Shown here piece by piece: positions 4,173 through 63,302 of a stretch of 64,000 nt of DNA. Within the stretch, counting starts at the first letter, position 1, and every line of letters begins with the position of its first letter. Below the pieces are notes generated by a model. That model saw only the letters and a program-made list of their open reading frames with translations. It did not search any database and was not told where the DNA came from. This DNA comes from Alphaproteobacteria bacterium. GTDB lineage: Bacteria; Pseudomonadota; Alphaproteobacteria; Bin95. The stretch covers positions 1-64,000 of the forward strand of contig JAURGE010000001.1 of assembly GCA_030833925.1 (NCBI GenBank), given 5' to 3'. Made by a program: the position numbers and the translations under genes.

Positions 4173-4681
4173 GCATTAGCTACCGCGTTAAGGGCGGCCG
4201 TGAAGCCGCGAAGAGAGAAAATGTCTTTTGTAAGGGTGCCACGTGACGAAGTACCTTTGAGTTCAAGGGCGGTTCCAGCCGTCATTCTGGATAGAAGTGT
4301 TTGGCCATCTTTAACTTGCGGCCATGCAACATCACTTACAGCGTCAGCAATGAAGCGGTTAGAACCTATCGAAAGGGTCGGCTTGCTGTTCTTCTGGTAT
4401 GTATACCCCGCAATTGCACTTACTTCATCATAAACGTTATCAGTGGGGCGCCGTGTGACCATAAGAAACACAGGGTCGCGCCTCGAGTAGTTCCCTATGG
4501 ACTCCTTTGGGGAAGTCAGCGCATAGCAAATTTTACTGCCCTTCTCATCAGCAGTGTATGCTTCCCAATCTCTAAAACGTCCAAGTGATTTGGGATTAGC
4601 TGCAGAGGCAGTTTCTATGAAAAGAAATATTCCGGTAAAAGCCAAAAGGCTAACGAAAAATGTGCGGGTAGATGTTGGCAT
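4157..4681 (-). CDS. Invasion-associated locus B (IalB) family periplasmic protein
   Basis: A 174-residue exported protein. Residues 1-28 form a signal peptide (charged start, hydrophobic [15 protein letters not shown], cleavage after ASA). The mature part begins with [11 protein letters not shown] and contains [10 protein letters not shown] and [10 protein letters not shown], typical of the IalB fold named after the Bartonella invasion protein; family members occur widely in free-living alphaproteobacteria and their biochemical role is unclear. Two cysteines, one in the CYAL motif and one near the C-terminus (NACPKR), could form a disulfide. It overlaps rlmN downstream. A more distant paralog is at 35379-35876. 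Confidence 0.88.
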
Positions 4682-4993
4682 GGGTCTCCTGAAATCTCTT
4701 AACTATTTTGCTTATAGAATCGGTCATATCCAAAAAATAGGGCGCTGACATGGCCCATCGAAGAGCCTGAACTTGCTGCTTGAACTTAACGGCAGGAGCT
4801 TTTCGGGCCAAGGCCCTGCCGGCAAATCGTCGCGACACGATATATAAATCAGCAATCTTTGTTAGAAGCGGGTTGATTTGATGCGTGGCATCTGTATAAC
4901 AGCGCCTTCGTCGACGGCCGGCCGGATCCGCGATTTTTTTCGCGCGGCCTGCTGTCGAGTTTTTTTCCAACCATACGCGGGTATGAACCGGTT
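4682..4993. promoter_or_regulatory. Gene-free divergent region and leader of the rpsF operon
   Basis: These 312 bases separate ialB (minus) from rpsF (plus). No convincing gene is present. For the plus strand there is a TATATAAAT stretch at 4841-4849 that could be a -10 region, though no good -35 is seen. Between it and rpsF is a GC-rich leader with a GGCCGGCC palindrome (about 4916-4923) and a hairpin (CGCGA, six T, TCGCG at 4929-4944). In many bacteria the rpsF leader is bound by the S6:S18 complex; whether this leader does so is a guess. rpsF itself has no clear Shine-Dalgarno sequence. Confidence 0.4.
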
Positions 4994-5437
4994 ATGGGTT
5001 ACTACGAGAACGTATTCATTGTTAGGCAGGATATGTCGCCTGCTCAAGTCGAAGGTTTGGCAGACAATTATGCCACGCTGATCGAAGAGAATGGCGGCAA
5101 GGTCCTCAAGCGCGAGCATTGGGGCCTTAAATCTCTAGCTTACAGGATTAAAAAGAACCGCAAGGGGCACTATGTCATGTTTGACGTAGAGGCGAATTCA
5201 GATGCGGTTAATGAATTAGAACGTCAGATGCGGTTGTCTGAGGACGTCATAAGGTTCATGACAGTGAAAATCGATGAGGTGACAGAGGCTCCGTCACCAA
5301 TGATGTCACGACGTGACCGTGATGACCGGCGCCGTTCTCGGGATGACCGAGATGATGATTTTGGCGATGATGGCGATGACGTGCGTGGTCGCGCTGACCG
5401 CGAAGACGCTGACACCATCGAAGAGGAGAATTCCTGA
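4994..5437 (+). CDS. rpsF: 30S ribosomal protein S6
   Basis: S6 of the small ribosomal subunit, partner of S18 on the platform. Residues 1-95 are the conserved ferredoxin-like fold ([41 protein letters not shown]). Residues ~100-147 form a long charged tail that is first Arg/Asp-rich ([15 protein letters not shown]) and then acidic. E. coli S6 also has an acidic tail, post-translationally glutamylated, so this extension is not unprecedented but is long and strongly mixed in charge. It is first in the operon rpsF-rpsR-rplI; its TGA overlaps the rpsR ATG by one base. Confidence 0.97.
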
Positions 5438-5676
5438 TGGCAATGGGCGGCGGCCGCCGGCCGTTTTTTCGACGCAAGAAGTCGTGCCCGTTCTCGGGCC
5501 CTCACGCGCCGGCAATAGATTACAGAGATGTGCGATTGCTTCAGCGCTTTTTGACCGAGCGCGGTAAGATTGTGCCCAGTCGCATATCGGCTGTATCGGC
5601 AAAGAAACAACGCTTGCTTGCTCAGGCAATCAAGCGTGCTCGTCACATCGGGCTCCTGCCCTACATTATCCGCTGA
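5437..5676 (+). CDS. rpsR: 30S ribosomal protein S18
   Basis: A 79-residue basic protein matching S18 over its full length: [15 protein letters not shown] at the start, [19 protein letters not shown] in the middle, and [21 protein letters not shown] at the end. It binds S6 and 16S rRNA on the platform. A strong ribosome binding site (GAGGAG) lies inside the end of rpsF, and the start ATG shares one base with the rpsF stop (TGATG), so translation of the two is coupled, as befits proteins made in equal amounts. Confidence 0.98.
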
Positions 5677-5712
5677 TCCGCGCCTGCTGGCGGACACCGG
5701 GAGTAAAGTCTA

Positions 5713-6309
5713 ATGGATATTATTCTGCTTGAGCGTGTCGAGAATCTCGGCCAGATGGGCGATGTAGTAAAAGTAAAGAACGGGTATGCCCGTAATTTTC
5801 TTTTACCTCAGAAGAAAGCCCTTCGCGCGTCCAAAGACAACATAGCTTATTTTGAAACCCAGAAAGCTCAGCTAGAGGCTCAAAATATAGAACGTCGCCA
5901 GGAGGCTGAGGCCGTTGCTGGCAAGATGACTGGCATGTCTGTGGTATTGATCCGATCTGCAGGGGATACTGGTCAACTTTATGGATCTGTATCCAGCCGT
6001 GATATTGCTGACGCAATGGTGGAGGCTGGCACCTCCATAGATCGCCGTCAGGTCGAGTTAGAGCGCCCGATCAAGACCTTAGGCCTTCATGGAGTGCGTG
6101 TGCGGTTACACCCCGAAGTGGTGGTGACTGTTACAGCAAACGTAGCTCGCTCGGCTGATGAAGCAGATGCTCAAGCCCGTGGTGAGAATGTCCTAAGCCG
6201 CGATGAAGGTTTTGAGTTCGATGACGACCTCGATGCCGACGAAGCGCCAGCTCTTGAGGATCTTCTTGAAGAGCCAGCAGCGGAAGAGAATGAATCCAAG
6301 GCTGATTGA
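5713..6309 (+). CDS. rplI: 50S ribosomal protein L9
   Basis: L9 of the large subunit, 198 residues. The N-terminal rRNA-binding domain is clear ([21 protein letters not shown], then [16 protein letters not shown]), followed by the long connecting helix and the C-terminal domain ([28 protein letters not shown]). Typical L9 is ~150 residues; the last ~45 residues are an added, strongly acidic tail ([19 protein letters not shown]). A GGGAG ribosome binding site precedes the ATG. It is the last gene of the rpsF operon and converges with the DUF192 gene, with only 3 bases between the two stops. Confidence 0.97.
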
Positions 6310-51261: not shown

Positions 51262-52047
51262 ATGCAAAAAGATAATTGGGGGGATAAGGCTCGCATTGGG
51301 ATCTTTATCGTCAGCTCAGAGGCTGTGCCTGAGGCTGAATGGAACGCGATGGCTCCGTCTGGAGTTTCTATTCACGCAGCAAGGATAGCATCGCCAACGC
51401 CTTGGGCGGTTTGGCGACCTGACAGATCGAGAGTTGGTCTTTCTGCTGATCTGTTGAGAGGCGCGGAGCATTTTGCGGGCATGCAGCTTTCAGCAGTAAC
51501 GACGGCGCATACATCTAGTAGTGTTGTCGGAGGCGAGGGTTGGGATGCAGCAGTTGTTGCGGAACTGCGGTCAGTTGTTGGACCGAACATAGTTATAAGC
51601 ACCAATGGCCTAGATATGATTGCTGGGCTTAAGGCTTTGGGTGCTCGAAAGCCGTTTCTGGTTGTTCCACCGTGGTTCGGTGAATCAATAGTGAGTGCCC
51701 TGCAAATTTACCTGCAGTCAGATGGCTTTGAGCCCTCTGGCTGGCTTCGTCATGATCCTGGACCCGAATGGCGAAATGTATCGATAAGTGAAATGTATCC
51801 GCGAGGCCTGGGATTCGCTCAGGATGTGCAGGCGCTTTATCACCAAATCGTTGAGGCCTGCCCAAAATCTGGTGATGCGGTTTTGATTTGCGGCACTGGC
51901 TTTCGTTCCGTCGCGATTATTGGGGATCTGGAGAAAGAATTAGACATGCCAGTGGTCACAGCTAATCAGGCCAGTTTATGGCGCTGTCTTCGGTTAGTGG
52001 GTGTTAATGATTCCATATCGGGATACGGCCGCCTGCTTCACCTTTGA
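51262..52047 (+). CDS. Asp/Glu racemase superfamily protein, maleate isomerase/arylmalonate decarboxylase-like
   Basis: A 261-residue protein. The first half reads SAVTTAHTSSSVVGG, where maleate isomerase and racemases have a catalytic Cys; here it is replaced by Thr/Ser around residue 84-87. The second half keeps Cys210 in LICGTGFRSVAII. A single cysteine in the second half is the pattern of arylmalonate decarboxylase, so a decarboxylase or a different enolate chemistry is more likely than racemisation or cis-trans isomerisation. It is the first gene of the 51-57 kb cluster, after 231 gene-free nt. Confidence 0.78.
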   Translation: MQKDNWGDKARIGIFIVSSEAVPEAEWNAMAPSGVSIHAARIASPTPWAVWRPDRSRVGLSADLLRGAEHFAGMQLSAVTTAHTSSSVVGGEGWDAAVVAELRSVVGPNIVISTNGLDMIAGLKALGARKPFLVVPPWFGESIVSALQIYLQSDGFEPSGWLRHDPGPEWRNVSISEMYPRGLGFAQDVQALYHQIVEACPKSGDAVLICGTGFRSVAIIGDLEKELDMPVVTANQASLWRCLRLVGVNDSISGYGRLLHL

Positions 52048-52134
52048 TATTTTTAAAGTTGGTGGGTTTGCTGAACTTAATTTCTTGCCCCACACTATTG
52101 TTCGACCGTAGTTGATCCGATGAGGGCAATTTGA

Positions 52135-53604
52135 ATGACCCAGCCTATCAAAGCCGCTGCAGAGCACATAGCTAGCTTACAAGATGGGCGGACGGTGTAT
52201 TTAGACGGTCGTGTCGTCGGAGACGTTACCACCCACCCAGCATTCGCAAGATCGGTGTTATCTGCCGCAAACCTGTATGATTTTCAGGCGGATCCATCCA
52301 ACGCAGATCTGATGACCTTTGCATCACCAAAAACAGGAAGACGGGTTAATCGGGCATGGCAGATGCCACGTACCTACGCCGAATTGGTGCAACGCCGTGA
52401 AGCGCTGGTTGCCTGGGCTGAGCAACATGGCGGCTTTATGGGACGTTCCCCTGATCACTTGGCGTCTGCCGTTACTGGCCAACTCATGGGATTAAAGCTG
52501 TTTCAAGAGTATGACCCAGCTAGAGCTGGGGCTTATTGGGATTATTATGAATATGCGCGGGATAATGATCTCTTCCTGACCTACGTAATCATTAACCCGC
52601 AAGTGGATAGATCAAAGTCGGCATCCGATCTTGCTGAAGACCCGATGATGAAGATCGTCGACGAAGATGGTGAGGGAGTCACCGTTCGAGGCGCTAAGAT
52701 GCTTGGAACGTCTTCTATAATGGCAAATGAGGTGTTTGTTGCCCATTTGCAGCCACTCCGCCCCGATGAGGTCGATTATGCTATCTCATTCGCTGTGCCG
52801 ATGAATATTAAAGGTTTAAAAGTCCTTTCGCGAAAATCTTACGAGCAACACGCCGTCTCTGAATTCGATAACCCCCTGGCTGCTCGTTATGATGAAAACG
52901 ACGCTTTGATATATTTCGATGATGTGAAAGTGCCATGGGATCGCATCTTTGTGCATCGCAGTCCCGAAATGTGTCGACGCCAATTTCATGACACGCCTGG
53001 TCACATTTATCAAAACTACCAGGCGCAGATACGCCTTTCAGTCAAATTGAAGTTTCTCCTGGGCTTAGCCCGCCAAATTTGTGAAACAATAGGCACGGTA
53101 AATATGCCTCCGGTATCCGAGCAGCTGGGCAGGTTAGCGGCGGAGGCAGCAGCCGTAGAGAACATGCTCTGGGGCATGGAGGCTAAGGGGTCGATGCATG
53201 GCGATTACTTCGTCCCAGATAGGCATGCCGTCTATGCGGCTCAGACCATGACACAGGCAATCTATCCAAACTTCATCAACTCAATGAGAGAACTCGCTGG
53301 CGGGGCGCTGATAATGCTGCCCTCCTCATCCGCCGATTATAATGACGCTGATCTAGCGCGCATTATTTCTAGCGTCCAAATTGCAGCTGATGGACGGGAT
53401 TCTCTAGACAGAGTTAAGTTAATGAAGCTGGCTTGGGATGCCGTTGGTTCCGAATTTGCAAGCCGCCATACTCAGTATGAAATGTTTTATGCTGGCGCGC
53501 AGTTTGTAACCAGGGGTCACAGCTTTCGCACCTATGATTGGGCAAAGACGCGTGATCTCGTGAATGTGATTTCCAGTCGATATGAAGCGCCCAAGGTGAA
53601 TTAG
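52135..53604 (+). CDS. HpaB-type FADH2-dependent monooxygenase (4-hydroxyphenylacetate 3-monooxygenase family)
   Basis: A 489-residue member of the acyl-CoA dehydrogenase-fold HpaB/PvcC family, which hydroxylates phenols with FADH2 delivered by a separate reductase. IKAAAEHIASLQDGRTVYLDGRVVGDVTTHPAF (in parts) opens the protein; VRGAKMLGTSSIMANEVFVAHLQPL is in the flavin-binding middle, and the C-terminus has HSFRTYDWAKTRDLV. No HpaC-type flavin reductase gene is nearby. It could act on a phenolic or on 4-hydroxybutyryl-CoA-like substrate. 87 nt after the AMDase-like gene. Confidence 0.88.
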   Translation: MTQPIKAAAEHIASLQDGRTVYLDGRVVGDVTTHPAFARSVLSAANLYDFQADPSNADLMTFASPKTGRRVNRAWQMPRTYAELVQRREALVAWAEQHGGFMGRSPDHLASAVTGQLMGLKLFQEYDPARAGAYWDYYEYARDNDLFLTYVIINPQVDRSKSASDLAEDPMMKIVDEDGEGVTVRGAKMLGTSSIMANEVFVAHLQPLRPDEVDYAISFAVPMNIKGLKVLSRKSYEQHAVSEFDNPLAARYDENDALIYFDDVKVPWDRIFVHRSPEMCRRQFHDTPGHIYQNYQAQIRLSVKLKFLLGLARQICETIGTVNMPPVSEQLGRLAAEAAAVENMLWGMEAKGSMHGDYFVPDRHAVYAAQTMTQAIYPNFINSMRELAGGALIMLPSSSADYNDADLARIISSVQIAADGRDSLDRVKLMKLAWDAVGSEFASRHTQYEMFYAGAQFVTRGHSFRTYDWAKTRDLVNVISSRYEAPKVN

Positions 53605-53679
53605 ATCATACACAGAGTTTAGCGGGTCGCTGTTATAACTTATGGCAACAGCCGAGTTGGAAGTGATGGAGTGGTCCTA

Positions 53680-54405
53680 ATGTTAGATGCGTATCGAAGT
53701 CCGTTGCTTCTATTGGTGCAGATGAACATTCAGCGGGATTATGAGGATGCGTTCCAAAGTTGGTATTACCATCATGTACCCAAGCTCCTTGAAATCCCGG
53801 GATGGCACTGGGGCCGCCGTTATAAGGGTGTTAAGGGTGATACCAAATGGTTAGCTCTATATGCCGTCGAGGATATGGAGGCCCTAACTCGGGTTATGGC
53901 TGTAGACAATGCCAACAAGGATGCCCGCGCAATTGCAGAAAGGTCACTTTTTGATGGCATACCTGGCAAGACAGATGTGATTTCAAATGTCTATGAACAG
54001 CTGAGCGGAGGCCACCTTTGCAATCCATTCTTGAGGAATGACCATTATTTAAGTGTTGTGATGGCGGATGTGGCTGACCCATCTAAAGAGGCTGAGTGGA
54101 ATGCTTGGTATGATCATTCGCATGTCCCAAATCTCGTGAAGATCCCCGGGTATCTTTCAGGTGCGCGTTTTAGGATCAAATCCGATCCACGATTTGGACA
54201 GAAGAATATGGGGCCGAAATACTTAGCTCTCTATGAGTGGGAAGGACCCCACTGTCTCGAGACACTGGGCAATCCAGAAACGATGCGGCCTGAAGCCAAG
54301 GCTGAGCTTGCAGAATGGCATAGTTATGGCCTGCCCTTGGCCAAAAACACAGCATGGAATGTCTACGAACCGATCGCAACTTGGCGGAGTTTTCGCCAAG
54401 AATGA
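53680..54405 (+). CDS. Tandem dimeric alpha/beta barrel protein (EthD-like), unknown function
   Basis: A 241-residue protein made of two similar halves. The repeats share a motif: FQSWYYHHVPKLLEIPGW (residues ~25-42) and WNAWYDHSHVPNLVKIPGY (~143-161), then each WLALYAVED or YLALYEWEG. The pattern resembles EthD/ABM-type domains that dimerise to a ferredoxin-like barrel; here two copies are fused in one chain. The ATG at 53680 is preferred over GTG at 53671 because GGAG lies 8 nt before it. Likely part of the pathway, perhaps an oxygenase- or binding-type accessory; no function known. Confidence 0.75.
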   Translation: MLDAYRSPLLLLVQMNIQRDYEDAFQSWYYHHVPKLLEIPGWHWGRRYKGVKGDTKWLALYAVEDMEALTRVMAVDNANKDARAIAERSLFDGIPGKTDVISNVYEQLSGGHLCNPFLRNDHYLSVVMADVADPSKEAEWNAWYDHSHVPNLVKIPGYLSGARFRIKSDPRFGQKNMGPKYLALYEWEGPHCLETLGNPETMRPEAKAELAEWHSYGLPLAKNTAWNVYEPIATWRSFRQE

Positions 54406-54477
54406 TTTTTATTGTCGTCAGCCGAAGTTTACCCCCTGTTTCCAGGTCTTTGGCATAGTTTTGAGAGGAACAGCGTC

Positions 54478-56037
54478 ATGTCCTGGGAGCCAGAACTAAG
54501 AGAGCTAAGGCGGCGTGAAGCTATGGCCCGGGCTATGGGCGGTGTCGATAAGGTTAATCGCCAGCATGCAGGTGGGCGGCTGACGGTTAGGGAAAGGATA
54601 GACGGCCTTGTGGATCAAGGGTCCTTTCATGAGATTGGCGCGATAGCCGGGAAGGCCGAGTACGACAAGCAACATAACCTTACCCATTTTCTGCCAGCGA
54701 ATTGTGTCCTGGGCCGTGCAACAGCGGACGGACGACCAATTGTTGTTTGTGGTGATGATTTTACGGTGCGTGGCGGGTCGGCTGATGCCACTATTAAAGA
54801 AAAGCCTCAGCTGGCGGAAAAGATGGCCTTTGAGCAACGCATCCCAATCGTGCGTATCATTGAAGGCTCAGGTGGCGGCGGTTCTGTGCGAACTATCGAA
54901 ACAACGGGCCGAGCGAATCTGCCGGGTGGACAGGGAACCTCTAGCCGTTTTGATCTGATGGCTAGAAATTTATCGAATGTACCGGTTGTGGCTTTGGGGC
55001 TGGGTTCAGTAGCGGGACTAGGTGCTGCGCGACTGGCCGCTAGCCATTACTCAGTCATGACTAAGGAAACCTCTGCGATGTTTGTCGCGGGGCCACCCGT
55101 CGTTAAGGGAATAGGTCAAGATCTGACCAAACAAGAGCTTGGTGGTTGGAAAATCCAAACACGAGCCGGAGGGGTTGACGACGCTGTTGATACTGAAGAG
55201 GAGGCATTTGAACGTGCGCGTCGTTTCCTTTCTTATTTGCCAAGCTCAGTGGATGAATTGGCATCGCGGGGTCCGGTTGAGGACGCTCCCAATCGTCGCG
55301 AAGAAAGCTTGATCGCAGCCATCCCAAAGAACAGGCGCCGCGCCTACAAAATGAGACCGATAATCCAGTCGATCGTGGACAAGGATTCATTTTTTGAAAT
55401 GGGCAGTAACTTTGGGCGTTCTGTCATCACCGGCTTAGCCCGATTAGATGGGTGGCCTGTCGCGTTGATGGCCAGTGATCCCATGATACTTGGTGGTGCT
55501 TGGACTGCTGAAAGCTGTCTTAAGCTTATCCGTTTCATTGATATGGCCGAGACTTTTCATTTGCCGGTCGTTTATCTTGCTGACTGTCCTGGTTTTCATA
55601 TTGGGTTAGAGGCGGAAAAGGCCGCCACCATTCGTCATGGTGTTCGCGCTATGGCAGCTATTAACCAATCAACCGTTCCATGGTGTGCTGTTGTCGTCCG
55701 GGCGGCTTTTGGTGTTGCTGGTGGGGCGCACGTGAACGTTGGTCGGTACTGCACGCGCTATGCTTGGCCTAGTGGTTGGTGGGGCTCTCTGCCTCTGGAA
55801 GGTGGGATTGAAGCTGCATATCGTGCTGAACTTGATGCAGCCGATGATCCTAAGGCCGAGCTTCTTGCAATTGAGGAGCGGTTGGAAGCACTGCGCTCAC
55901 CCTTCCGTACTGCTGAAGCATTCTGGATCGAAGAAATAATAGACCCCCGTGATACTCGCCCTTTGCTGACTGATTTCGCAACGTTAGCGCAAAAGGCTCT
56001 AAAGCCTGGCTTGACGGGTTTTGGTCTTAGGCCATGA
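54478..56037 (+). CDS. Acyl-CoA carboxylase carboxyltransferase (beta) subunit-like protein
   Basis: A 519-residue crotonase-fold carboxyltransferase. MSWEPELRELRRREAMARAMGG at the start (ATG 54478, preceded by GAGAGGA); the frame opens earlier at 54412. AGGRLTVRERIDGLVDQGSFHEIG, IRIIEGSGGGGSVRTI-like loop, AGPPVVKGIGQDLTKQELGGW and PCA-like LADCPGFHIG are family motifs. PccB/MccB-type enzymes need a biotin carboxylase/carrier subunit; none is in the window. It may recruit a shared alpha subunit or serve a decarboxylation. 72 nt after the previous gene. Confidence 0.9.
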   Translation: MSWEPELRELRRREAMARAMGGVDKVNRQHAGGRLTVRERIDGLVDQGSFHEIGAIAGKAEYDKQHNLTHFLPANCVLGRATADGRPIVVCGDDFTVRGGSADATIKEKPQLAEKMAFEQRIPIVRIIEGSGGGGSVRTIETTGRANLPGGQGTSSRFDLMARNLSNVPVVALGLGSVAGLGAARLAASHYSVMTKETSAMFVAGPPVVKGIGQDLTKQELGGWKIQTRAGGVDDAVDTEEEAFERARRFLSYLPSSVDELASRGPVEDAPNRREESLIAAIPKNRRRAYKMRPIIQSIVDKDSFFEMGSNFGRSVITGLARLDGWPVALMASDPMILGGAWTAESCLKLIRFIDMAETFHLPVVYLADCPGFHIGLEAEKAATIRHGVRAMAAINQSTVPWCAVVVRAAFGVAGGAHVNVGRYCTRYAWPSGWWGSLPLEGGIEAAYRAELDAADDPKAELLAIEERLEALRSPFRTAEAFWIEEIIDPRDTRPLLTDFATLAQKALKPGLTGFGLRP

Positions 56038-56329: not shown

Positions 56330-57256
56330 TCAAATTGCCTCGAAATCTGATTTAGGCGCATCGCAATTTGGACAGGTCCAATCTTCTGGAATGTCAGTGA
56401 AAACTGTCCCGGCCTTGATCCCAGCGCCTGGATCCCCCTCTTTTTGATCATACACGTAGCCACACAGCGGACACTCATGCATGCCCCCTGCTTCAGCTGA
56501 ATCCTTAATCGTGGCTAATTTGTTGGGGAATTGAAGTATCATGGCATCCAGCCCATCGTCTCCAGCAAGAAGTTCTGGAGCTCCCTCACCCTGGGCGGCA
56601 AAAGCAAGTGACCACTTGGGAAGTATATTGTCGGAACATATCCAACTGCCGCCGATCACCACAACATAATAACCGTCTCCGGCAGGCTTTGGAGGAGTTA
56701 TGCGCTGTTTTGGTCCGAGCGTTACCCGCCAGGCTGCTGCGCCGTCACCTTCAGGACCATATAAGACCGACAAGTTAGGGGAATCCCAGGACCTCAGTGT
56801 TTCTGCGTCGATTTCCGGCTTATCTGGATCTGCCATAAAAAAACGCTTCGGCACAGGTTTTAATTTTTCCTTTGAGTCTGGCAAAAATAAAGCGCCTGGA
56901 TCGCGACGTGGCCGAAGAGTGTAATAGATCACTCCTTCTGCTTCATCGGCCACAATGGGCCCGTAGGGTGTGTAAGCCCCGGAATAATGGATTGAAAGAG
57001 GTCCAAGCTTATGTCGTCCTAAACGACCACCACCTGAGGCGATTAACTGAAATTCTGCCGCAATATGAAAATGAGGTTCCACTATCGAGCCAGGTGGTTG
57101 TTCGACGCGGAATGCCTGCGGTTTTTCTTCGGAAATATTTGGGTCACGGCCATTAAAGGGCCCAACGAAATCAAACTCGCGAGCCAGAACCACGGTTGTA
57201 TTGGGCAACTCTTTGGTCCAGGCCCGAGTGCCGGAGAATGAAATGGCTTCGACCAT
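56330..57256 (-). CDS. Bicupin-rubredoxin fusion protein
   Basis: A 308-residue protein. The first ~245 residues look like two cupin-type barrels: the first has [23 protein letters not shown] with an HxHxxxxE metal-type motif; the second ([22 protein letters not shown]) is degenerate. The last ~50 residues are a complete rubredoxin: [19 protein letters not shown]...[20 protein letters not shown], with two CxxC iron knuckles. An electron-transfer domain joined to a metal barrel suggests a redox enzyme or electron feeder for a nearby oxygenase. I do not recall a characterised protein with this architecture. Confidence 0.85.
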
Positions 57257-57272
57257 TGTTGAATTATCCCAA

Positions 57273-57728
57273 TCAGGCTGTCGGGCGTTTCATCATTAAG
57301 CCCATGCGCTTGCAGTATGCGACTTCCTTGCCGTGTTGATTGAAGCCCCTGTGTTCAAAAGTGACGATCCCTTGTGTCGGACGAGATTTAGACTCCCTTT
57401 TATCGATTATTGTGGTTTCAGATCGAATTGTATCGCCATGGAAAACTGGATTGCGAAAAGCTGTGTCCGTCATACCTAAGTTGCCAATTGTAGTACCGAG
57501 CGTTGTGTCTCCAACAGAAACTCCAATAACTAAGCCCAATGTGAACAAGGAGTTCACGAGCCTCCCACCATGCTCTGATGCTTTTCCAAATTCTTCATCT
57601 AGGTGAAGCGGCTGCGGATTATGGGTGAGTGCGCAAAAAAGGACGTTGTCCATCTCTGTCACAGTTCTTGTGAGGTCGTGTTTGAATACCTGACCAATCT
57701 CAAATTCTTCGTAGTATAGTCCTGGCAT
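57273..57728 (-). CDS. MaoC-like dehydratase (hot-dog fold)
   Basis: A 151-residue MaoC protein with [32 protein letters not shown], where Asn/His replaces the Asp/His hydratase dyad seen in the other copy (DTNPVH). This form resembles mesaconyl-/itaconyl-type MaoC hydratases. It is 16 nt upstream of the bicupin-rubredoxin gene in the same direction, so the two are probably co-transcribed. Substrate likely an enoyl-CoA or branched acid. Confidence 0.85.
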
Positions 57729-57925
57729 CGGAAGTCCCCGGTTGGTGTTTAATTCTCAGCAATCACTCTAACGTTGGGCGCGACAAGGCGAAATGCTTTA
57801 AGCCCTAAAAATCGCTCTCTTGAAACATATTAAACTGGCTATGCGATGCTGGTTTATGCACTTTCTAGCGCTTAAGATCGGAATAGTTCGATTTTTTGAA
57901 AAACAATTTCGCCTGGGGGATAACA

Positions 57926-59245
57926 ATGCTGCACGATATTCGGGGTTATCCGATCGACACTGATAACGCAGCCTGCGTGGAAAATTTTGACAAGGCGATA
58001 GCGCGATTCTTTGAGTTTAGGCTTGATGCGGTTGAGTATGCGGACGCTGCGATTGCTGCAGACCCCGATTGTGCGATGGCCCAACTTCTCAAAGGCTACA
58101 TGCTAATGGGCGCGCAGTCGCGCAATCTTTTGCCGATTGTTGCTGGCCATATTACCAAGGCAGAGTCAAAGCCCGGTGGCGTACAACAAAGAGCTAAAGG
58201 CTGGTTGGTGGGCTTAAAGGCCCTGCATGCTAACGAATTACCCCAAGCCTCTAGATTGCTTGGCGAGCATATGTCTGAGTGGCCCTTAGATCTTTTTGTA
58301 TTAAAGCAGCTGCACCAACAAACGCTGTTTTGGCGCGGTAAGAGCCTTGATTTGCGGGACTCTGTGCTCCGTGTCAGCCATGCCTGGAATAAAGATGTAG
58401 TTGGTTATGGGAACTTTTTGGGCATGCTTGGTTTTGGATACGAGGAGGCGGGAGATTACGAAAAAGCAGAACGCTGCGGTCGGGCGGCCCTTCAGTACAG
58501 CCCTGAGGATCTATGGGCAGTGCACACTGTGGCACATGTTCTGGAAATGCAGGGGCGCCACAAACAGGGCGTTGAATGGATTGATTATCCATTGAACGCT
58601 TGGGATGATCGAACCCCCCTTGCTAGGCATATATGGTGGCATAAAGCTCTGTTTCTTTGGGATTCTGGAAACTATGAAGAAACCTTGGCGTTATACGATA
58701 GCGCTGTTTATCCAGGTCCTTCGACAGCATACATAGATGTTCAAAATGCAGCTGCGTTGTTGTGGCGGTTGGAAATGACTGGCGTGGATGTAGGGGATCG
58801 CTGGAAGGTTCTTGCCGGCCAGGCAGAAGCAACGATGGATGATCAATTACTCGCTTTTACTGAAAGCCATGTTTCCGCAGCGCTCGCTAAGGCTGGACGA
58901 TCAGAGGCGCTTGCACGACAGCGGCAACACCTTGCAGAACGGGCAGATGGGAAGGGCTGGGCTGCGATGCTTGCAAGCGAGGTTTCAATTCCTCTTGCGG
59001 ATGCTTTCGCTGCTTATTCGATGGGTGACTACGACCAAGCTTGCGATGGATTGCTTGCCAGTCGGGAGGATTGGGTCCGTGTTGGAGGCAGTCATGCTCA
59101 ACGTGATCTGTACAATCAGATCTTGGTTGATAGTGCTATCAAATCAGGTCGAAGAAATCTCGCCGAGTCGCTTCTTGCAGAAAGAGCGATGCAGCATCCC
59201 AATAGTCAGGGGGTTCATTATTGGCGCAGCCAGCTTGATTCCTGA
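57926..59245 (+). CDS. TTC38-like tetratricopeptide repeat protein
   Basis: A 439-residue TPR-fold protein. The ATG at 57926, after a GGGGGA site, fits better than the TTG 30 nt upstream. It resembles human TTC38 along its whole length: DLWAVHTVAHVLEMQGRHKQG, WWHKALFLWDSGNYEETLALYD, LLWRLEMTGVDVGDRWKVL and GGSHAQRDLYNQIL are close to TTC38 blocks as I remember them. No enzymatic motif or signal peptide. Function unknown in both bacteria and animals. Stands alone between the MaoC gene and a convergent nitroreductase gene. Confidence 0.82.
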   Translation: MLHDIRGYPIDTDNAACVENFDKAIARFFEFRLDAVEYADAAIAADPDCAMAQLLKGYMLMGAQSRNLLPIVAGHITKAESKPGGVQQRAKGWLVGLKALHANELPQASRLLGEHMSEWPLDLFVLKQLHQQTLFWRGKSLDLRDSVLRVSHAWNKDVVGYGNFLGMLGFGYEEAGDYEKAERCGRAALQYSPEDLWAVHTVAHVLEMQGRHKQGVEWIDYPLNAWDDRTPLARHIWWHKALFLWDSGNYEETLALYDSAVYPGPSTAYIDVQNAAALLWRLEMTGVDVGDRWKVLAGQAEATMDDQLLAFTESHVSAALAKAGRSEALARQRQHLAERADGKGWAAMLASEVSIPLADAFAAYSMGDYDQACDGLLASREDWVRVGGSHAQRDLYNQILVDSAIKSGRRNLAESLLAERAMQHPNSQGVHYWRSQLDS

Positions 59246-59817: not shown

Positions 59818-60909
59818 TTAGTTAACCGCCGCTAAATTGCGAAGGGTGTCAGGCTGAATGCCAACGCTTTCTCCAGATGCCAGTATTTCGCGCCATGTCT
59901 CATCATCTACTGGCACGCCCTCTGCACGTCTTTCTGCCATTGTTTGGCGTTCTGGGTCACCAGGAACAAGAACAGGCTTTGCCGGATCGGCCGCAGGCGA
60001 GGCTGTGACGTGGGCAATCGCTGCGTCTATTTCAGCCTCAAAGCTTGCTCGATCGGTCATCTTCTCGGGGTCGATTATGATTGACAGCATTCCATTGAGG
60101 ATAACGTCGTTTTGATGATGTGTTTCCGGCCGGCAAGTATGACCACCGGATAACACTCCGCCAAAAAGTTCATTCATAAACGCAAGTCCATAACCCTTAT
60201 GGCCTGCGGCTTCTCCACCAACGGGAGCAAGCGCCCCCATCGGCTCTTGAAAAAGGACCATTGGATCGCGGGTTGGCTGGCCTGTGTGGTCTATAAGTGC
60301 ACCTTCCGGCGCCTCTACCCCCTTATTTTTGGCAACTCGGATTTTCCCTTGGGCCACGGCGGAAGTGGCAAAGTCTAAGACAGTGGCGGGATTGGTTGAG
60401 GTCTTTGGAAGGACAATGCAGTAAGGGTTTGTGGAGATCCTTGCATCAGAGCCGCGGAAAGGAGCGACGTAACCTGGATGACCATAACCATTGACGTGAT
60501 GCATGGAGACTAAGCCGTGTTCTGCGCACTGTTCGCCCCAAGCGCCTATTCGACACAGATGATAAGAGTTACGGATCGTTAGAATGCAAAGTCCGAAAGC
60601 CTTGGCTCGTTCAATGCCGATCTCCATTGCTTCCTCACCAATTACTTGGCCGTAACCTTGGTTCCCATCGACTTGAACTATTATGCCGTGATCGGTAACG
60701 ATTTCTGCATGTGAGTTGATGTTCAATTCGCCTGTGAATGTCGACTTAATATATCGGGGCAGCATTCCGACGCCGTGGCTATCATGCCCTTTCAAATTAG
60801 CTACCACTAGATTCCGGGCAACTTGGTCCGCCTCTTTTTCAGATGAACCACGGGCGGAAGTGATTAGGCGGCATACGGCTTCGAGCTTATCTGCTTGAAT
60901 TGTTGGCAT
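59818..60909 (-). CDS. Ldh family NAD(P)-dependent 2-hydroxyacid dehydrogenase (tandem copy A)
   Basis: A 363-residue enzyme of the malate/L-lactate type-2 dehydrogenase family. GHDSHGVGMLPRYIKS near 42, RNSYHLCRIGAWGEQC near 112, NPYCIVLP, GKIRVAKNKG, GHKGYGLAFMNELFGG are conserved; the C-terminus PGDPERQTMAERRAEGVPVDDETWREI is shared with copy B. 18 nt after copy B, so they form one operon, and the two are clear duplicates. The substrate is unknown; family members handle malate, sulfolactate, ureidoglycolate and ketogulonate. Confidence 0.92.
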   Translation of the reverse strand: MPTIQADKLEAVCRLITSARGSSEKEADQVARNLVVANLKGHDSHGVGMLPRYIKSTFTGELNINSHAEIVTDHGIIVQVDGNQGYGQVIGEEAMEIGIERAKAFGLCILTIRNSYHLCRIGAWGEQCAEHGLVSMHHVNGYGHPGYVAPFRGSDARISTNPYCIVLPKTSTNPATVLDFATSAVAQGKIRVAKNKGVEAPEGALIDHTGQPTRDPMVLFQEPMGALAPVGGEAAGHKGYGLAFMNELFGGVLSGGHTCRPETHHQNDVILNGMLSIIIDPEKMTDRASFEAEIDAAIAHVTASPAADPAKPVLVPGDPERQTMAERRAEGVPVDDETWREILASGESVGIQPDTLRNLAAVN

Positions 60910-60927
60910 AGTGTACGTTCCTCAGGC

Positions 60928-62007
60928 CTAAATACCGGCAATGTCGTTCAGATCGTCAGCGCGCATGCCGACGGATACAGCTGATTCTGTGATTTCTCGC
61001 CAAGTCTCATCATCAACAGGCACACCCTCTGCCTCTCTCTTTTTCCAGGACATGCGTTCAGGATCTCCTGGTACAACTACTGGTTTAGCTGGATTAGCTG
61101 CTGGGGAGCCCTTTACATTGGCTATTGCTGCGTCAGTTTCCTCATTAAATCGTTTGCGTGAGACAAGTCGGTTCGGATCAATGATGACAGAGAGCATATT
61201 GTTAATTGTCTTGGGAGGATCAAAACGAGTTTCGGGTCTGCAGCCGACCGTACCGGTCATAGCAGAAGGTAAAATTTCATTAAGAAGCGCCAGCCCATAA
61301 CCCTTGTGCGCACCAAATGGATTTAAGGCACCGCCAATAGGGTCGGTATACATGATATTAGGGTCGCGGCTCGGCTTCCCTGTTGTGTCAATCAGCGCGC
61401 CTTCTGGAGCAGGTTCGCCCTTATTGCGAGCGACACGTATTTTACCCATAGCAACAAAGCTAGTCGCAAAATCAAGTACGGTCGGGGGATTTTGATCGGT
61501 TGCTGGCATTACCGCGCAGTACGGGTTTGTGATGTAGCGCGCATCGGAACCACCAAAAGGTGCAACCGATGCTTTATGCCCAACAACATTCACATGATGG
61601 GTGGATACAAAACCTGCAGCTGCGCACTGCTCGCCCCATTGACCAATACGACCAATATGGTGAGCATTTCGGAGCCCTACACAGGCAGCGCCAAACCGCT
61701 TAGTTCGTTCTATGCCGATAGCCATCGCCTCTTGTCCTACCACCTGGCCATAGCCCGATCGGCCATCGATAACTATGACAGCGCCATTGTCGACAACAAT
61801 TTCGGCGTGTTCATTTGGCTTAAGACCGCCATTCAGTAAGTTAGTTATGTACGTTGGGATCATTCCTACGCCATGGCTATCATGGCCGGCCATATTGGCG
61901 TCTACTAAGTTGTCAGCAACAATGCGAGCCTCATGGTCCTCACTGCCGCCAGCGATACAAATCGCAGCGATAGCGTCCCGAAGTCGGGCGTGATCTATTG
62001 TCAGCAT
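60928..62007 (-). CDS. Ldh family NAD(P)-dependent 2-hydroxyacid dehydrogenase (tandem copy B)
   Basis: A 359-residue duplicate of the following gene. GHDSHGVGMIPTYITN, RNAHHIGRIGQWGEQC, NPYCAVMP, GKIRVARNKGEPAPEGALID and GHKGYG-type GAHKGYGLALLNEI, ending PGDPERMSWKKREAEGVPVDD. The ATG at 62005-62007 starts a normal MLTIDHARLRDAI; 18 upstream codons look spurious. By eye roughly half the positions match copy A. It is divergent from the MFS gene, and their starts are very close or overlap. Confidence 0.92.
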   Translation of the reverse strand: MLTIDHARLRDAIAAICIAGGSEDHEARIVADNLVDANMAGHDSHGVGMIPTYITNLLNGGLKPNEHAEIVVDNGAVIVIDGRSGYGQVVGQEAMAIGIERTKRFGAACVGLRNAHHIGRIGQWGEQCAAAGFVSTHHVNVVGHKASVAPFGGSDARYITNPYCAVMPATDQNPPTVLDFATSFVAMGKIRVARNKGEPAPEGALIDTTGKPSRDPNIMYTDPIGGALNPFGAHKGYGLALLNEILPSAMTGTVGCRPETRFDPPKTINNMLSVIIDPNRLVSRKRFNEETDAAIANVKGSPAANPAKPVVVPGDPERMSWKKREAEGVPVDDETWREITESAVSVGMRADDLNDIAGI

Positions 62008-62039
62008 TATTAGTCTCGTCAAAACGGGAAAAGAAAAAA

Positions 62040-63302
62040 GTGCAAGAAGGAATATCAGCACAAGCTAGCGCGCTGGAAAAGCCGTCGTCGCTATTCCTTG
62101 ATAGAGATTTTTTACGAGTCTGGCTCGCAGGGGGTACGGTTGGTGTTATGCGGTGGATGGATGTGCTTGTAGTTGGTTACTACACAGTCCAAATCACTGG
62201 TTCAGCCTTAATCACTGCTCAGATGTTATTCCTTCGAATGTTACCTATGTTTCTTCTGGGTGCATTCTGTGGAGCTTGGGCAGAGCGGTTTGATAGAAGG
62301 ATCCTTCTGATCTTTCTGATGTTGTCGATGACGGGGATGTATTCGACGCTAGCCACCCTTGCCATATTTGAAAGACTAGAGTTGTGGCACGTTGCCATTG
62401 GGGTAACATTCTCTGGCATTTTTTGGTCATTCGAATTGCCAGTGCGCCGCACGATGGTTGGAGATATAGCAGGGTCAACCCGCCTGCCCCGCGCCATGGG
62501 GCTGGAAAGTGCCACTAACAGTATTACCCGTGCTTCCGGAGCCTTTATCGGAGGGGCTTTGTTGGATTTTACTGGTATCCAGGGGCCTTTCGGATTTGGT
62601 GCTTTTGTGTGTTTCTGCGGTGCTTTTCTGCTCACTGGTGTGCGGCGTGGCACCCGAAGCGAAGGTATCGGCCGCGAGCCTGTGTTGCAGAGCCTAGCTG
62701 CAGGCGTGCGCTACATACGCCAAGAAAGAGTTATCCAAGCAGTCCTTTTTGTTACGATAATTCTAAATCTCTTTGGCTTTGCTTGCGTTTCAATGCTTCC
62801 GGTTATAGGTCGCCAGAATTTTGAGATGAGTGCATTGGAAACAGGAACCCTCACTAGCTTGGAAGGAATTGGCGCACTCTGTGGCGCAACCCTTGTTGCC
62901 GCTTTTGCCAGGTCGTCGCAACTTGCGCGCATCTTCACTATAGGCGCAGGTACTTATATTGCTTGTATGGGCCTGTTTGCCTGGATGGGTTGGCTCGGAG
63001 GGATGTCGCTTATTTATATTGCAGGTGGGTTTCTCTTTTTAGCCGGGTTTGGGCTTTCTGGTTTTGGATCGATGCAATCAGGGCTCATTCTTGCGCGCGC
63101 ACCACCTTCAATGCGGGTCCGAGTGATGGGTGTTTTGGCCATGTGCATTGGCAGCGGCCCCATTGGAATTCTAAATGTGGGATGGATTGCCGAAACCGTT
63201 GGCGACGCTGCTATTGCGGTCATTATCGTAACCAGCATTGGATTTATTTGTTATTTAATTGCAAATAATTTCTATCCAGAGCTTAGACGCCGATTGACCT
63301 AA
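62040..63302 (+). CDS. MFS exporter (EntS/MFS_3-like)
   Basis: A major facilitator of about 420 residues with some 11-12 hydrophobic segments (e.g. FLRMLPMFLLGAFCGAWAERFDRR, FVTIILNLFGFACVSMLPVIG). The AERFDRR motif between helices 2 and 3 and GRQNFEMSALETGTLTSLEGIGALCG are typical of the enterobactin-exporter group (DHA3). Start uncertain: an earlier TTG at 61998 would overlap the Ldh-family gene by 10 nt; GTG at 62040 after GGGAAAAG avoids it. May export a product of the adjacent dehydrogenases, but that is a guess. Confidence 0.85.
   Translation: MQEGISAQASALEKPSSLFLDRDFLRVWLAGGTVGVMRWMDVLVVGYYTVQITGSALITAQMLFLRMLPMFLLGAFCGAWAERFDRRILLIFLMLSMTGMYSTLATLAIFERLELWHVAIGVTFSGIFWSFELPVRRTMVGDIAGSTRLPRAMGLESATNSITRASGAFIGGALLDFTGIQGPFGFGAFVCFCGAFLLTGVRRGTRSEGIGREPVLQSLAAGVRYIRQERVIQAVLFVTIILNLFGFACVSMLPVIGRQNFEMSALETGTLTSLEGIGALCGATLVAAFARSSQLARIFTIGAGTYIACMGLFAWMGWLGGMSLIYIAGGFLFLAGFGLSGFGSMQSGLILARAPPSMRVRVMGVLAMCIGSGPIGILNVGWIAETVGDAAIAVIIVTSIGFICYLIANNFYPELRRRLT

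What the first reader, a model, noticed from the sequence alone, without database searches (positions are those of the whole stretch)
57926..59245. Bacterial homolog of the eukaryotic TTC38 family
The protein matches blocks I recall from human TTC38 across its length (AVHTVAHVLEM, GGSHAQRD, LWRLEMTGVDVGDRW). TTC38 has no well-defined function, so a bacterial copy with a simple context could give a lead. The direction of descent (mitochondrial ancestor, transfer) is worth testing.
Basis: partly seen in the sequence, partly recalled or inferred. Interest (0 to 1): 0.5.

Follow-up and report, generated by a model that had tools for sequence, protein, structure and literature searches.

The report
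Bacterial TTC38-like protein, likely metal enzyme
A bacterial protein that looks like a relative of TTC38, a human protein of unknown function, is built like a protein-binding scaffold but carries four almost never-changing histidines placed as if to hold a metal ion, which suggests that the family are enzymes and can be tested simply.

Summary
The ORF is real (57926-59245 +, 439 aa) and the quoted blocks are in it. It belongs to a discrete, patchy bacterial family (54 of 398 phylum genomes, own included; three copies in its own genome). Descent is unresolved.

The new lead: two HxxxH pairs (H200/H204, H235/H239) are present together in 147 of 148 distinct members, including 41 of 42 not found by peptide pattern and under 30% identical to this protein. 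The exception lost all four; a same-genus relative keeps them. In a confident model (pLDDT 95.4) they lie on neighbouring A helices at TPR groove positions. Others report human TTC38 as an off-target of the hydroxamate panobinostat, and that rare TTC38 variants raise urinary X-22162. My reading: a TPR-fold metalloenzyme of small-molecule metabolism. Metal, substrate and reaction are inferred, not shown.

The parts
57926..59245 (+). TTC38-like family protein, 439 aa, TPR solenoid of about 11 helix pairs
   Evidence: translation; family searches; AlphaFold2 model pLDDT 95.4, pTM 0.92
57915..57919 (+). Shine-Dalgarno-like GGGGG, 6 bases before the ATG
   Evidence: read directly; role inferred
58523..58537 (+). 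first HxxxH, H200 and H204, helix 196-208, TPR positions 5 and 9
   Evidence: 147 of 148 rows each; 66 of 67 rows not found by pattern; helix; register
58628..58642 (+). second HxxxH, H235 and H239, helix 232-246, TPR positions 2 and 6
   Evidence: 147 of 148 rows each; 66 of 67 rows not found by pattern; helix; register
58766..58768 (+). R281, helix 269-284, candidate substrate-binding or second-shell residue
   Evidence: 148 of 148 rows; role inferred
58868..58870 (+). H315, helix 310-322, candidate fifth ligand or acid/base
   Evidence: H in 136 of 148 rows, Q 8, N 3, S 1; role inferred
59084..59107 (+). GGSHAQRD block (387-394) at the start of helix 390-406
   Evidence: G387 148, S389 147, Q392 147 of 148 rows; H390 is H in 47 of the 67 rows not found by pattern
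57273..57728 (-). divergently transcribed MaoC-like enoyl-CoA hydratase, 151 aa
   Evidence: Pfam PF01575 E 3.2e-22; homologues lie upstream on the opposite strand in L034-L037 too
56330..57256 (-). protein of 308 aa with C-terminal rubredoxin domain
   Evidence: Pfam PF00301 E 1.8e-20; homologues within 2 kb of the family gene in L034 and L035
59295..59729 (-). F420H2/deazaflavin-dependent nitroreductase-family oxidoreductase, 144 aa
   Evidence: Pfam PF04075 E 8.3e-40

Best explanation
The gene encodes a bacterial member of what is very likely the TTC38 family. The protein is a TPR solenoid whose concave groove carries a four-histidine metal site (H200, H204 on one A helix; H235, H239 on the next), with R281, H315 and the S389/Q392/D394 cluster around it. 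I propose that it is a soluble metalloenzyme that converts a small molecule in catabolism or detoxification, and that human TTC38 does the same for the unidentified metabolite X-22162. Shown here: conservation, loss as a block in one member, position on A helices at groove-facing TPR positions. Reported by others: hydroxamate binding and the human metabolite association. Inferred: that a metal is bound, that it is catalytic, and the reaction. If it is a metalloenzyme I weigh a hydrolase at about 0.5, an oxygenase or other redox enzyme at 0.35, other chemistry at 0.15.
For: Quartet in 147 of 148 aligned members, all 148 distinct in sequence; in 66 of the 67 rows (this protein included) not found with peptide patterns, in 41 of the 42 of those under 30% identity to P0001, and in 41 of 42 after thinning to under 60% mutual identity, mean pairwise identity 29%. 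The only exception, L122, has L, A, T, Y at the four places, S at H315 and G at S389, while keeping R281, G387, Q392 and the family profile; a member from the same genus keeps all four. Of 20 loci kept from the search with L122, one is L122 itself, one (L155) is split by a stop, and 18 of 18 others keep the quartet; 5 of these 18 were already among the 148 rows, 13 are new. Of P0001's 16 histidines these four are the ones held in 66 of 67 rows; H315 follows with 59 and H390 with 47. Of 15 positions conserved at 90% or more whose residue is polar, Trp or Tyr, 11 lie on A helices, 1 on a B helix, 3 in loops (A/B assigned by me). TPR register fits 9, 7 and 9 of 10 canonical positions in the repeats at 162, 196 and 234 and puts the histidines at positions 5, 9, 2 and 6. 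Panobinostat, a hydroxamate, shifts human TTC38 in proteome-wide assays, in lysate as well as in cells (passages read). Rare potentially damaging TTC38 variants raise urine X-22162 (effect 0.76, p 1.9e-22, passages) and p.Ala12Val associates with X-22162 in another cohort (passages). Two Streptomyces plasmids carry the family domain as the C-terminal half of a gene annotated FAD/NAD(P)-binding protein (flavoprotein domain confirmed by Pfam in one), both with the quartet.
Against: No metal, activity or solved structure: profile and fold searches list only TPR-type solenoids, none known to me as an enzyme with a groove active site. Atom coordinates of the model were not available, so His-His distances were not measured. 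No fixed operon: same-strand near neighbours are varied. Panobinostat has a large cap and could bind without metal; one paper lists TTC38 among 'direct or indirect' targets, and some proteins that shift with it are downstream, not binders (FADS1, DHRS1, histones). X-22162 is unidentified and that it is a substrate is inferred; PKDREJ shares the locus of one association. TPR registers for the helices with R281 and H315 are ambiguous. The block loss is a single case, in a GC-rich region with long overlapping frames.
Confidence: 0.6

Rival explanations
1. A non-catalytic TPR adaptor that binds a peptide or small ligand; the histidines contact the ligand or hold the fold, as groove residues do in other TPR proteins.
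For: The similarity found is to TPR scaffolds; a groove is where TPR proteins bind ligands (general knowledge); no enzyme family matched in Pfam or NCBIfam.
Against: Four histidines in two i,i+4 pairs are held in members under 30% identity while other groove residues of the same repeats (197, 207, 208, 258) change between clades, and they were lost together in the one exception. No widely shared partner among the 103 near same-strand neighbours scanned. Human variant data point to a metabolite.
Confidence: 0.2
2. A metal or haem sensor or store: the site binds metal but does no catalysis.
For: Bis-HxxxH sites can bind zinc, iron or haem (general knowledge). L122, without the site, lies next to a gene matching ZIP zinc transporters; the Sphingobium copy lies within 6 kb of copper genes; L035 and L036, close relatives, have a copper chaperone PCu(A)C gene next door.
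Against: Metal genes are a small minority of the neighbours listed. More of the listed neighbours are metabolic enzymes; the human association is with a metabolite.
Confidence: 0.08
3. Not TTC38-related: another TPR family whose resemblance to TTC38 is recall bias.
Against: The recalled sequence scores 436 bits to the bacterial profile. The family is discrete without it, but that says nothing about TTC38.
Confidence: 0.05

Closest known systems
Human TTC38 (tetratricopeptide repeat protein 38)
   Same: By a recalled sequence: 33% identity over 356 residues to this protein; all four histidines, R281, H315, S389, Q392 and D394 present
   Different: Not compared with a database record; E for R211 and N for H390 in the recalled sequence; the human metabolite X-22162 may not be the bacterial substrate
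StaR-like family (CDD cd05804 and StaR of the A47934 glycopeptide cluster, both recalled)
   Same: Recalled description: one family in bacteria, plants and animals, with an enzymatic role speculated
   Different: Not tested; my paper searches gave nothing that I could use on it (listings only)
TPR superhelices (OGT TPR domain, Rap-type regulators, APC/C subunits)
   Same: Overall fold: Foldseek best E 3.4e-5; VIA-align best Z 18.0 at rmsd 4.1 over 318 residues
   Different: 6 to 17% identity in the listed rows; these are peptide- or protein-binding solenoids (general knowledge); presence of the histidine quartet in them was not checked residue by residue
Hop/CHIP-type TPR carboxylate clamp (recalled: TPR positions 5/9, 6 and 2/6)
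   Same: Same groove-facing TPR positions as the histidines here (register here)
   Different: Clamp residues are Lys/Asn/Arg and bind a peptide C-terminus without metal; the comparison is from memory and my paper search for it returned nothing

Membership tests
TTC38 family | full-length sequence homology to eukaryotic TTC38, better than to general TPR proteins | tested here: inconclusive
   Only a recalled human sequence could be used: 436 bits to the bacterial profile, E 7.6e-61 to P0001. Generic TPR chains match at most about 110 residues, best E 3.7e-8.
TTC38 family | reciprocal best hit with animal or plant genomes | not testable with these tools
   no eukaryotic genomes held
this bacterial family | a discrete family apart from generic TPR proteins | tested here: met
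   A 3-row and a 43-row profile share 53 genomes of the same sample of 398; the wider one adds its own centre and one weak partial hit. Caveat: rows of the wider profile come partly from these genomes, so its low E-values are partly by construction.
TPR proteins | TPR helix pairs with canonical register | tested here: met
   PF07719 27.0 bits at its cut-off of 27 (borderline); helix pairs in the model; canonical positions in three repeats, others weaker; TPR folds in the PDB
metalloenzyme | strictly conserved candidate metal-ligand set | tested here: met
   147 of 148, joint loss in the one exception
metalloenzyme | ligands within metal-binding distance | not testable with these tools
   model coordinates not supplied; only helix and register evidence
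metalloenzyme | bound metal and catalytic activity | not testable with these tools
   needs experiment

The most novel reading that the evidence does not exclude
TTC38 and its bacterial relatives are an unrecognised class of metalloenzyme in which a TPR solenoid, normally a protein-binding scaffold, has become the active-site scaffold: a four-histidine metal centre in the groove, conserved across Pseudomonadota, Actinomycetota and Cyanobacteriota (seen here) and in animals (by recall), and bound in man by hydroxamates.
Probability: 0.5. Interest if true: 0.75.

Novelty: new member of a known kind. Interest (0 to 1): 0.5.

Why it matters
As far as I know, TTC38 is a human protein without a known function; it is a repeatedly reported off-target of a drug in clinical use and the gene behind a strong urinary metabolite signal. 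If the family are metalloenzymes, the question 'what does TTC38 do' becomes a short biochemical experiment, the drug off-target would be explained by metal chelation, and a TPR solenoid would be shown to serve as an enzyme active site.

Tried and rejected
Rejected: generic TPR protein (the family is discrete). Rejected: a fixed operon giving the substrate. Of 103 near same-strand neighbours scanned, Pfam counts are acyl-CoA dehydrogenase 8, aldo/keto reductase 5, hydantoinase/oxoprolinase B 4, chorismate synthase 3, S49 peptidase 3, amidase 2, molybdopterin-binding xanthine-dehydrogenase type 2 and others; 25 of the 69 families were shown. Against far neighbours, the acyl-CoA dehydrogenase cluster is 8 of 109 near versus 5 of 455 far, and the aldo/keto reductase cluster 5 of 109 versus 0 of 455, but loci are related, so the p values there are not independent. 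In one search only the first family gene of each of 118 loci was used. Rejected: a 929-aa frame in L157 as a fusion; its upstream part has no Pfam match and looks like an out-of-frame run in GC-rich DNA.

Not found: relatives in viral contigs (26 pattern stretches, none confirmed) or, with P0001, in phage records; with the L148 domain one short unannotated faecal phage record matches over 30% of the query (not followed). No dedicated Pfam or NCBIfam model for this protein at E<=0.01. Only TPR-type folds; the tool says that an absent fold is not excluded.

Rows left out before counts: L001 and L004 (copies of the window and L002 genes), L144 and L145 (same genes again). G217's broken second copy, listed as one partial match and as two adjacent pieces, was not fetched, so its histidines were not examined. 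L155, split by an in-frame TGA, was read as two pieces and not counted as a full member. The 81 rows from genome contigs were found by patterns that contain some of the histidines, so the fairer count is the 67-row one, though the profile that found most of those rows holds the histidines too. The folding alignment held 56 rows, P0001 and loci from the search for related loci only.

Papers: I saw passages of six and listings of the rest. Listings (40 of 93 shown) showed me no title or abstract that calls TTC38 a metalloprotein; I did not open the others, and most subscription papers and all preprints are missing from the library. The identity of X-22162 was not found (listing of 3).

Full report
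The observation. Pfam knows it mainly as weak TPR (TPR_2 27.0 bits at a cut-off of 27, other TPR models below theirs), NCBIfam only by stray hits far below cut-off. The PDB sequence searches gave only weak, partial matches, best to designed TPRs and TTC7B.

The family. The window's own genome holds three members: this one, one at 39% and one at 33% identity. A three-row profile finds members in 54 of 398 genomes of the phylum at E<=1e-10, own genome included. A 43-row profile on the same sample around another centre finds 55 of 398: 53 shared, the new centre, and a partial match inside a 2808-aa frame. In genome contigs 397 of 420 pattern stretches encode relatives, of which 80 loci were kept. 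Of 72,556 plasmid records 57 match, among them Actinomycetota and Cyanobacteriota; where the 40 rows listed have an annotation it is mostly 'tetratricopeptide repeat protein'. So it is a discrete, patchily distributed family.

Relation to TTC38. No eukaryotic sequence was available. In a quick tree of 66 rows it falls in the main 50-row group (SH-aLRT 89, not starred) without further starred placement. This makes the kinship likely and leaves the direction of descent open.

What is conserved. In an alignment of 148 members, all distinct, H200, H204, H235 and H239 are each present in 147, R281 and G387 in 148, W238, S389 and Q392 in 147, H315 in 136. The 81 rows from genome contigs were found by patterns that include some of these residues, so I recounted on the 67 rows found otherwise: 66 keep all four; of the 42 under 30% identity to P0001, 41 do; of 42 rows thinned below 60% mutual identity (mean pairwise 29%), 41 do. 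Residues W197, E207, M208 and D258 change between clades. Of the 16 histidines of P0001 none outside the four reaches 66 of 67; H315 has 59, H390 47.

The exception. L122 lacks all four (L, A, T, Y), and has S for H315 and G for S389, though it keeps R281, G387, Q392 and the family profile. It is the only copy found in its genome. A relative from the same genus has all four, and so do 18 of 18 unsplit relatives among the 20 loci kept with L122 as query (13 of them new). Loss as a block is what one expects of a functional site; it is one case only, in GC-rich DNA with long overlapping frames.

Structure. AlphaFold2 with a 56-row alignment gives mean pLDDT 95.4 and pTM 0.92, about 11 helix pairs. 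Foldseek and VIA-align match TPR superhelices such as OGT, Rap regulators and APC/C subunits (best Z 18.0, rmsd 4.1 over 318 residues). Of 15 positions conserved at 90% or more whose residue is polar, Trp or Tyr, 11 are on A helices, 1 on a B helix, 3 in loops. The TPR register is clear for the repeats at 162-195, 196-229 and 234-267 (9, 7 and 9 of 10 canonical positions) and puts H200/H204 at positions 5/9 and H235/H239 at 2/6 of the next repeat; it is ambiguous for the helices with R281 and H315. By recall these are groove-facing positions, the ones used by the carboxylate clamp of Hop. I could not measure distances because coordinates were not supplied.

Clues from man. From passages I read: panobinostat, an HDAC inhibitor (a hydroxamate, recalled), shifts TTC38 (PMC6885700, which speaks of 'direct or indirect' targets; [quoted passage not shown] PMC7666118). 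PAH, an iron enzyme by recall, is among the other off-targets; FADS1 is listed there too but called downstream, so it does not count. Rare potentially damaging TTC38 variants raise urine X-22162 (PMC7878905), in a table where PTER variants raise N-acetyltaurine; p.Ala12Val associates with X-22162 in another cohort, in a locus shared with PKDREJ (PMC5780481). TTC38 is in a liver table of an Nrf2 study (PMC2891861). Together: a drug-binding protein, probably through a chelating group, whose damage lets a metabolite rise. That is what a metalloenzyme could look like, but each link is indirect.

Context. In the window the gene stands between opposite-strand genes: a MaoC hydratase, a rubredoxin-domain protein and an F420H2/deazaflavin oxidoreductase, with an HpaB-type monooxygenase and a carboxyl transferase a few kb upstream. 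MaoC is kept upstream on the opposite strand in L034-L037. Across loci no operon is fixed; of 103 near same-strand neighbours 8 are acyl-CoA dehydrogenases, 5 aldo/keto reductases, 4 hydantoinase B. Two Streptomyces plasmids carry the domain as the C-terminal half of an 893- and an 889-residue gene, each annotated FAD/NAD(P)-binding protein; the flavoprotein domain was confirmed by Pfam in the first, and both have the quartet. This hints at redox chemistry, in a divergent clade.

Verdict. The TTC38 claim stands as likely; the gene itself is an ordinary member of a known, uncharacterised kind. What is worth attention is the testable reading that the family are TPR-fold metalloenzymes. I give that about 0.6 overall, with the metal, the substrate and the reaction unproven.

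Noticed in passing
L148:4189-6870 and L201:4606-7275: Two Streptomyces plasmids carry the TTC38-like domain at the end of genes annotated FAD/NAD(P)-binding protein, 893 and 889 aa; NAD_binding_9 was confirmed by Pfam in L148.
   Followed up: partly
L122:6001-7368: The one family member of 148 without any of the four histidines; a gene matching ZIP zinc transporters lies just upstream (4254-5909).
   Followed up: partly
window 56330-57256 (-): A 308-aa protein with a C-terminal rubredoxin domain and an upstream part without a Pfam match; homologues lie within 2 kb of the family gene in L034 and L035.
   Followed up: no
window 51262-56037 (+): Apparent catabolic operon: arylmalonate decarboxylase/EutA-like protein, HpaB-type monooxygenase, a protein with a DUF4286 match, and a carboxyl transferase.
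   Followed up: no
window 59818-62061 (-): Two adjacent ORFs that look alike by eye; the one scanned matches malate/L-lactate dehydrogenase (PF02615), so a tandem duplication is likely.
   Followed up: no
L126:7390-8085, L124:5212-5898, L125, L128: A protein of about 230-250 aa, the L126 copy without a Pfam match, follows the family gene in four related loci; in L126, L127, L128 and L130 an aldo/keto reductase-cluster gene ends 13-17 bases before the family gene.
   Followed up: no
L155: A family gene split by one in-frame TGA, both halves otherwise conserved.
   Followed up: no
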